From the NCBI GenBank assembly GCA_014860005.1, contig JACZKP010000132.1:1-37971 (forward strand): 37,971 nucleotides of DNA, given 5' to 3'. This DNA is from Verrucomicrobiota bacterium (lineage in GTDB: Bacteria > Verrucomicrobiota > Verrucomicrobiae > Limisphaerales > UBA11358). Positions 2,491 through 2,581 of the stretch are shown here, in pieces. The notes under the pieces are model-generated. The model did no database searches, was not told the DNA's origin, and was given only the letters and a program-made list of their open reading frames with translations. The first letter of the stretch is position 1. The number at the start of each line of letters is the position of its first letter. The translations under genes were made by a program, and so were the position numbers.

Positions 2491-2581
2491 GTAGGACAGG
2501 CGTCGCGCCTGTCTCAAACTGAAATCTGCATCGCCTCAAGGCGGAATTGGAGATGGAGGCAGGCGGGAAGCGCTGTCCTAC
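2491..2581. repeat. Intergenic palindromic repeat between mqnE and the propeller gene
   Basis: The left arm at 2491-2515 begins GTAGGACAGGCGTCGCGCC. Its 25 nt are identical to the reverse complement of 22545-22569 inside uvrB. The right arm, about 2555-2581, ends GCTGTCCTAC and is a diverged inverted copy. The element fills almost the whole gap between the stop of the upstream minus-strand gene (2587) and the mqnE start (2480). Its transcript could fold into a hairpin next to the mqnE ribosome-binding region. Confidence 0.85.

What the first reader, a model, noticed from the sequence alone, without database searches (positions are those of the whole stretch)
2491..2515. Same 25-nt arm in an intergenic copy and inside uvrB
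The arm at 2491-2515 equals the reverse complement of 22545-22569 over 25 of 25 bases, 20 kb apart. So one family occurs both between genes and within a coding sequence, which is direct evidence of a dispersed, mobile or copied element rather than two independent palindromes. I compare this to Rickettsia palindromic elements, which also insert in frame in genes; the sequences here are my own observation and I know of no description for this host.
Basis: partly seen in the sequence, partly recalled or inferred. Interest (0 to 1): 0.85.

Follow-up and report, generated by a model that had tools for sequence, protein, structure and literature searches.

The report
Mobile palindromic repeat inside repair gene
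A short jumping DNA palindrome of a known kind sits both between genes and, in frame, inside a DNA-repair gene of a verrucomicrobial bacterium, and in some relatives the enzyme that probably moves it is itself embedded, in frame, inside essential proteins such as the DNA polymerase.

Summary
In detail: 2491-2515 equals the reverse complement of 22545-22569, 25 of 25. Both arms are ends of head-to-head pairs of GTAG-tagged REP hairpins (REPINs): 2491-2581 fills a gap between two genes, 22503-22569 lies in frame in uvrB; a third pair, another stem, is at 7945-8008. 'Dispersed mobile element' is right; the closest known kind is the GTAG-REP/RAYT system, not shown to be Rickettsia RPEs, and REPs in repair genes of a verrucomicrobium are published (PMC3733652). 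The window's own genome is not held. The exact 23-nt REP occurs in 33 of 293 genomes of the nearest relative's order, up to 101 times. The uvrB site is a hot spot: relatives carry other REP pairs in the same linker. Of 30 pairs examined 17 are in frame in coding-like sequence, but core lengths are rarely multiples of three (2 of 17). New: RAYT transposase genes with the window's exact REP at one or both ends lie in frame inside a DinG-like helicase gene (3 genomes), others inside dnaE. Embedded RAYTs keep catalytic residues, are under purifying selection like their hosts, and group by host gene. My searches found no description.

The parts
2491..2581 (+). REP pair (REPIN) no. 1, head to head, 91 nt, intergenic between two minus-strand genes
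   Evidence: GTAG at 2491, CTAC at 2578-2581
2491..2513 (+). left REP, GTAGGACAGGCGTCGCGCCTGTC, 8-bp stem, 3-nt loop
   Evidence: this exact 23-mer was searched
2558..2581 (-). right REP, degenerate stem
   Evidence: by eye
22503..22569 (+). REP pair no. 2, 67 nt, in frame inside uvrB; encodes about 23 residues, (R)STGVAPVSDSFSDGDRRDACPT
22545..22569 (-). right REP of pair no. 2, the 25-nt arm of the finding
21302..23461 (+). uvrB, 719 aa; residues 400-422 are the part without counterpart, between residues 403 and 405 of the UvrB chain 2fdc_A
   Evidence: residues 404-421 are one of ten low-confidence segments of the model
7945..8008 (+). REP pair no. 3, other stem (GTAGTGGCACGGGC), 64 nt; its right REP is identical over 26 nt to a REP beside the RAYT in dnaE of G289 (L253), and the tag and stem equal those in dnaE of G001 (L256)
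1131..2489 (-). MqnC/MqnE-like radical SAM gene (label by eye) with its own in-frame palindromic insert at a site occupied by other elements in relatives
   Evidence: the CofH/MqnC Pfam match is for the G004 homologue
1901..2062 (.). inverted repeat (42-nt arms, 88%) within that insert; no GTAG tag recognised

Best explanation
The arms belong to a REPIN family: pairs of GTAG-tagged REP hairpins in inverted orientation, non-autonomous mobile DNA of the REP/RAYT (IS200/IS605-like HUH transposase) type. A RAYT recognises the single-stranded hairpin and its GTAG tag and copies or moves the pair to new places (inferred from published RAYT biochemistry, not shown here). Copies that fall in coding sequence survive when they leave the frame open and land in a permissive loop; the uvrB copy lies in the linker after helicase motif III, where relatives carry other REP pairs. 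In this order of Verrucomicrobiota the autonomous form, a RAYT gene between such REPs, also lives in frame inside host genes (DinG-like helicase, dnaE, priA, SNF2 and others), so that the transposase is presumably translated as an internal domain of the host protein. Shown: sequences, positions, frames, shared REPs, purifying selection, host-wise lineages. Inferred: mobility by RAYT, translation of the fusions, function of the host proteins.
For: GTAG tags, 8-bp stem, 3-nt loop, head-to-head pairs. Exact 23-nt REP in 33 of 293 genomes, up to 101 copies. RAYT in a DinG-like helicase gene with the exact REP: both ends in L243, one end in L244 and in L245, the other ends being variants or decayed; one loop base different in L250/L238. 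RAYT in dnaE of the nearest relative G001 bounded by the tag and stem of window 7945; in L253 (G289) one REP equals the window's right arm over 26 nt. In G006 the REPs of the RAYT in dnaE and of the uvrB linker are the same 23-mer GTGGGACAGGCGTCCCGCCTGTC. In G004 a pair of the window's family sits at the dnaE site where G001 and G006 hold a RAYT. uvrB linker: REP pairs in 4 of 16 long linkers (window included), 0.015 expected from shuffles. MqnC-like site: 13 distinct empty sequences of 10 aa, 7 occupied by unlike inserts, 3 of these with a GTAG/GTGG hairpin by script. H-x-H and Tyr columns at 1.00 in 149 aligned RAYTs, 24 of them free-standing; dN/dS of the RAYT part 0.07-0.17 in the 4 of 6 pairs with a finite dS, hosts of the same pairs 0.15-0.18; in the tree host labels change 12 times against 88 shuffled.
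Against: The window's own genome is not held, so copy number and RAYT there are unknown. No RAYT in the window. In G004 and G015, rich in this REP, none of the RAYT loci fetched carries this stem (4 of 5 and 13 of 18 matches fetched). G113, with 101 exact copies, shows other REPs at its two long-frame RAYTs. Only 28 of 70 RAYT loci scanned show any GTAG hairpin (tag GTAG only), and none was detected around the embedded RAYT in priA of G034 or alaS of G007. Movement was never observed; no cleavage or target site was defined. Three of 20 pairs with coding-like flanks are not open in frame. In two of the four dN/dS pairs dS is 1.8-2.4, near saturation.
Confidence: 0.87

Rival explanations
1. The copies spread by recombination or gene conversion among palindromes, not by a RAYT.
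For: The right arm of element 1 is degenerate and spacers differ, so exact arms could be homogenised by conversion. No transposition was seen.
Against: Different REP families occupy the same sites in different genomes and the empty MqnC-like sites are uniform; conserved RAYTs end in the same REPs.
Confidence: 0.08
2. The uvrB insert is kept because the peptide or the mRNA hairpin has a function in UvrB.
For: The insert is in frame, and 15 relatives besides the window have some insert at this place.
Against: Inserts there are unlike in sequence and length (about 14 to 60 aa beyond the common 29) and 40 of 74 sequences have none; the segment is modelled with low confidence, as are nine others.
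Confidence: 0.1
3. They are members of the Rickettsia palindromic elements.
For: In-frame insertion into genes, uvrB among them, is described for R. conorii (PMC3733652, section 15).
Against: GTAG tag and RAYT ends here; PMC3733652 places the intragenic R. conorii RPE-4/6 with its CGTC repeats, which 'apparently lack a dedicated transposase'. Sequence kinship with RPEs was not tested.
Confidence: 0.02
4. The RAYT fusions are assembly or gene-calling artefacts.
For: The named relatives are nearly all MAGs, and long open frames occur by chance in GC-rich DNA; I did not check every long frame.
Against: Same host sites in many assemblies, at least 100 aa on both sides in 115 of 120, host domains by Pfam, catalytic residues conserved, dN/dS as low as the host.
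Confidence: 0.03

Closest known systems
GTAG-tagged REPs (Di Nocera et al. 2013, PMC3733652; abstract, sections 5 and 15 and passages read)
   Same: GTAG tag (GTGG in most O. terrae GTAG-20), 6-13 bp stem, short loop, head-to-head pairs, some inside genes incl. uvrA, uvrB, dnaE; reported in the verrucomicrobium O. terrae
   Different: Not compared letter by letter with the 24 published families (figures not held); turnover of different REPs at one linker, and RAYTs in frame inside genes, do not appear in the parts read
REPINs (Bertels and Rainey 2011, PMC3116915; abstract and outline read)
   Same: inverted REP doublets as unit, partner RAYT
   Different: theirs are described as extragenic; many here lie in open frames
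RAYT/TnpA-REP REPtrons (PMC2817692, PMC8266576, PMC6006769; passages read)
   Same: HUH-Tyr transposase next to cognate REPs; the model of a fusion matches DinG (6fwr) and, for the embedded domain, 4er8, a REP-associated transposase on a REP hairpin (E 1.2e-4, rank 42)
   Different: the gene lies in frame inside a host gene. [quoted passage not shown]
Inteins
   Same: in-frame, catalytic domain, host-gene-specific lineages, in replication genes (intein traits recalled)
   Different: no intein or Hint Pfam domain in 17 RAYT-bearing long frames scanned; edge peptides differ in sequence and reading frame
Rickettsia palindromic elements
   Same: palindromes in frame in genes
   Different: other tag group, no dedicated transposase (from PMC3733652)

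Membership tests
GTAG REP | GTAG tetranucleotide next to a short stem-loop | tested here: met
GTAG REP | high copy number, dispersed | tested here: met
   in relatives: 33 of 293 genomes, up to 101 exact copies; own genome not held
GTAG REP | RAYT gene in the genome, flanked by cognate REPs | tested here: inconclusive
   met in relatives; window's genome not held; not seen in the G004 and G015 loci fetched
GTAG REP | binding and cleavage by the RAYT as single strand | not testable with these tools
   needs biochemistry
REPIN | two REPs in inverted orientation close together | tested here: met
   30 complete pairs of this stem read, cores 67-153 nt
REPIN | moves as a unit | not testable with these tools
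   only pattern evidence
Rickettsia RPE | in-frame insertion into protein genes | tested here: met
Rickettsia RPE | sequence of a described RPE family | not tested
   no RPE sequence was fetched
Intein (for the embedded RAYTs) | Hint/intein splicing domain | tested here: not met
   0 of 17 RAYT-bearing long frames in Pfam scans
RAYT (embedded domain) | HUH motif and catalytic Tyr | tested here: met
   HUH in 120 of 120 long proteins listed; H, H and Tyr columns 1.00 in 149 aligned RAYTs
RAYT (embedded domain) | match to the NCBIfam model NF047646 | tested here: met
   35 of 40 genomes match, 22 over the curated cut-off; many embedded ones score below the cut-off (G001 dnaE 61.8 bits, cut-off 80)

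The most novel reading that the evidence does not exclude
In Limisphaerales and some other bacteria, RAYT transposons have adopted a translated, intein-like but unspliced life: the transposase is an internal domain of replication and repair proteins (DnaE, DinG-like, PriA, SNF2), passed on for long times by host-gene-specific lineages, and is brought by its host to the single-stranded DNA it acts on; the small REP pairs in uvrB and elsewhere are its non-autonomous offspring.
Probability: 0.4. Interest if true: 0.9.

Novelty: new variant of a known kind. Interest (0 to 1): 0.74.

Why it matters
It indicates that a REP/RAYT system can use protein-coding sequence as its habitat: short pairs rewrite the same permissive loops of essential proteins again and again, and the transposase itself is carried inside essential enzymes. 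That makes testable how RAYTs persist, whether they are expressed and targeted through their host protein, and how proteins gain linkers. It also suggests that long RAYT-containing proteins, removed as fusions in one survey (PMC6006769), deserve a second look: 1611 matched here.

Tried and rejected
Lengths divisible by three: measured on 30 complete pairs of this stem (14; 16 that I chose from the listing, not at random, read). Seventeen are in frame with coding-like flanks; core lengths modulo 3 are 0 in 2, 1 in 7, 2 in 8. So the core is not as a rule a multiple of three; the frame is set by core plus junction bases. The nuoL-type copies of G015 and G110 (L127, L307) have the same length and surroundings and are probably one event. 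Pairs of 131-153 nt were found only where flanks did not look coding (6, 2).

A RAYT inside uvrB of L002 was suspected from its long match and rejected: a stray 25-aa match upstream. A cognate RAYT next to this REP in G004 or G015 was not found. My first test for the catalytic Tyr, a narrow motif, found 50 of 120; the alignment column replaced it. The coding score is home-made (codon model from long ORFs of L001-L046), so genic counts are approximate; Pfam was run on 7 proteins with REP pairs and 3 with RAYTs. Of the 30 loci, 14 were read and 10 of the other 16; six gave no frame by my motif. In L252, L261 and L265 no convincing REP flanks the RAYT.

Papers: nine searches gave no description of RAYTs inside dnaE or helicase genes; of their listings I opened five papers (PMC3733652, PMC6006769, PMC2817692, PMC8266576, PMC3116915), in part. 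Most subscription journals and preprints are not held.

Full report
What is there. The 25-nt identity is exact. Each arm starts with GTAG followed by a perfect 8-bp stem (GACAGGCG/CGCCTGTC) with a 3-nt loop. Both lie at the ends of head-to-head pairs: 2491-2581 (91 nt, right arm degenerate) and 22503-22569 (67 nt, both arms good; the left one has a 7-bp stem by script). A third pair with another stem (GTAGTGGCACGGGC) is at 7945-8008. A scan finds 7 GTAG hairpins against a mean of 1.25 in 20 shuffles. The first pair fills the spacer between two minus-strand genes, 10 nt before one start codon and 5 nt after the other stop codon.

Host. UvrB is nearest to MAGs of Verrucomicrobiota, best segment 89% (L001); some are titled Pedosphaera or Limisphaerales (80 best of at least 581 kept). 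No genome is held for the window, so genome-wide counts are from relatives.

Family. The loose pattern ACAGGCGNNNCGCCTGT occurs in 15 of 40 relatives, the reversed control in 3. The exact 23-mer occurs in 33 of 293 genomes drawn from the order of G001, most in G113 (101), G110 (65), G239 (64), G015 (29), G273 (27) and G004 (12); the reversed control in none.

uvrB hot spot. Anchors around the site were found in 74 sequences, window included (7 of 80 loci gave none): 40 have 28-30 aa between anchors, 34 have longer linkers. The window's residues 400-422 have no counterpart, between residues 403 and 405 of the UvrB chain 2fdc_A, after helicase motif III (SATP); that this chain is from Bacillus caldotenax and that the place borders domains 1a and 3 is recalled. 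Of 16 long linkers among the window and L001-L046, 4 (window, L002, L006, L015) hold a REP pair by script, 0.015 expected from shuffles; L001 (one arm by script) and L003 show a decayed pair by eye; the other ten show none. The tags and stems differ: GTAGGACAGGCG (window; GTGG in L006), GTAGCGGCTTTC (L002), GTAGCGGCAGGC (L015), GTAGCCGCCGAC (L001), GTAGCAGCGGAC (L003). Those of L002, L003 and L015 also occur beside RAYT genes in frames of ordinary length elsewhere (L174; L172, L173, L182; L116). In an AlphaFold2 model of the window's UvrB (mean pLDDT 70) residues 404-421 are one of ten segments below 50, which fits a loop but is weak evidence.

Other genic copies. Pairs or single REPs of this family lie in open frames, among others, in proteins with Pfam domains of valyl-tRNA synthetase, GatB, a NuoL-type antiporter, a Mur-ligase type (FolC-like by eye), an aminotransferase, a CofH/MqnC-type protein and DNA polymerase III alpha, and, named by eye only, in leuS-, ileS-, ispG-, metH- and nuoG-like genes. 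Of 30 complete pairs, 20 have coding-like sequence on both sides, 17 of them in frame and open. The MqnC-like gene gives a second hot spot: 13 distinct empty sequences of 10 aa and 7 occupied, by unlike inserts, the window's own gene included; 3 of the 7 show a GTAG/GTGG hairpin by script. The linker after SATL in DinG-like helicases varies likewise; in G001 it holds what looks like a decayed REP pair (by eye), most others show no REP.

Transposase. 35 of 40 relatives have RAYT-profile matches, 22 over the curated cut-off (the control rings in 6 of 14 named genomes, over the cut-off in 1). Of 70 RAYT loci scanned, 28 show at least one GTAG hairpin, several on both sides of the gene with one stem. 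In G001, the nearest relative by UvrB, a RAYT between REPs with the tag and stem of window 7945 lies in frame in dnaE (frame 1531 aa). It is the best DnaE match of that genome; the only other one over the cut-off, on C45, scores less than half and is probably DnaE2 (label recalled). In G006 dnaE carries a RAYT at the same site, on a contig that covers the end of the gene. PriA genes carry one in G006 and G034, an alanyl-tRNA synthetase gene in G007 (RAYT match, host); around the last two no REP was detected.

Census. With the RAYT part of the DnaE fusion as query, 1611 proteins of 0.55-1.75 times 1515 aa match at E<=1e-5; 120 are listed. By motif 44 are DinG-like, 36 DnaE, 25 UDPGP-like and 15 other; 115 of 120 have at least 100 aa on both sides, and all 120 keep the HUH motif. 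The length window selects long proteins by design. In 293 genomes 115 have a match at E<=1e-20 to the DinG-embedded RAYT; counting listed rows only, 26 genomes have one in an open frame of 900 aa or more (listing truncated, not each frame checked). Pfam shows host domains around or beside the RAYT in DinG-like (L243-L248, L250), SNF2 (L249, L251), UDPGP (L252, L255) and DnaE (L253, L256) loci; L254 shows the transposase domain only. DinG-like genes of 700-860 aa without RAYT are the rule in the 40 relatives.

The link to the window. L243 (G110), L244 (G127) and L245 (G161) hold the exact REP GTAGGACAGGCGTCGCGCCTGTC at the border of the RAYT insert in a DinG-like gene, at both ends in L243 and at one end in the others. 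G110 has 65 copies of it, G127 six and G161 five. In L253 a REP beside the RAYT in dnaE equals the right arm of window 7945-8008 over 26 nt. So both REP stems of the window are the ends of embedded RAYT elements in related species. Against this, G113, with the most copies, has other REPs at its two long-frame RAYTs.

Selection and descent. The H-x-H and Tyr columns are at 1.00 in 149 RAYTs, 24 of them free-standing. dN/dS in the RAYT part is 0.17 (L244-L245), 0.07, 0.09 and 0.14 in three further pairs, against 0.15-0.18 in their hosts; dS is near saturation in two of these and infinite in the remaining two of six pairs. In a FastTree tree of the 149, host labels change 12 times (shuffled mean 88); DinG-like forms one side of a branch with support 97, DnaE's two sites are mixed within one group, which suggests an occasional move between sites (rows come from a biased list). 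The model of the DinG fusion P0110 is modest (mean pLDDT 66, pTM 0.44); the RAYT core (531-700) is at 69-91 in blocks of ten, the flanks encoded by REPs and spacers mostly at 24-57, and the model matches DinG (6fwr, first) and the RAYT-REP complex 4er8 (rank 42, E 1.2e-4).

How it works. Published work, passages read, reports that TnpA-REP proteins bind single-stranded REP and cut near it, the GTAG tag being needed to a degree that varies (PMC8266576). By analogy an embedded RAYT would mobilise its own ends and the short pairs. In-frame copies would be what selection leaves. Whether the fusion is translated whole, and whether DNA-handling hosts help the transposase to single strands, is untested.

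Verdict. The given repeat is a new family of a known kind; REPs inside genes of Verrucomicrobiota were already known. The unexpected part is the embedded transposase and the repeated use of the same protein sites.

Noticed in passing
window 4953-5052: Inverted repeat with 35-nt arms (89%), no GTAG tag recognised; probably another palindromic family.
   Followed up: no
window 7881-8195: Cluster: inverted CCCTCTCCC-type arms around the 7945-8008 REP pair and a 50-nt tandem duplication (78%). A like element (LIPTLSPRERE...LSPLPGGEGQGEGE) is in frame in dnaE of G001, near where RAYTs sit at the second dnaE site of other proteins (by eye).
   Followed up: partly
window 15913-15946: Resembles part of the right half of element 1 (74%, D8) and reads LECGGKRSATPL in one ORF; possibly a further repeat family.
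   Followed up: no
window 23518-32808: ORF of 3096 aa with repeats about 1.3 kb apart (direct repeat family D1).
   Followed up: no
L047-L080, several Spartobacteria: UvrB often has a longer, partly conserved linker at the same site, with a GTAG hairpin inside it in L061.
   Followed up: no
P0005, P0103: Long RAYT proteins are also listed from a record named Planctomycetota (alanine-tRNA ligase-related) and one named Methylomirabilota (UDPGP-like by motif), so the habit may not be confined to Verrucomicrobiota.
   Followed up: no
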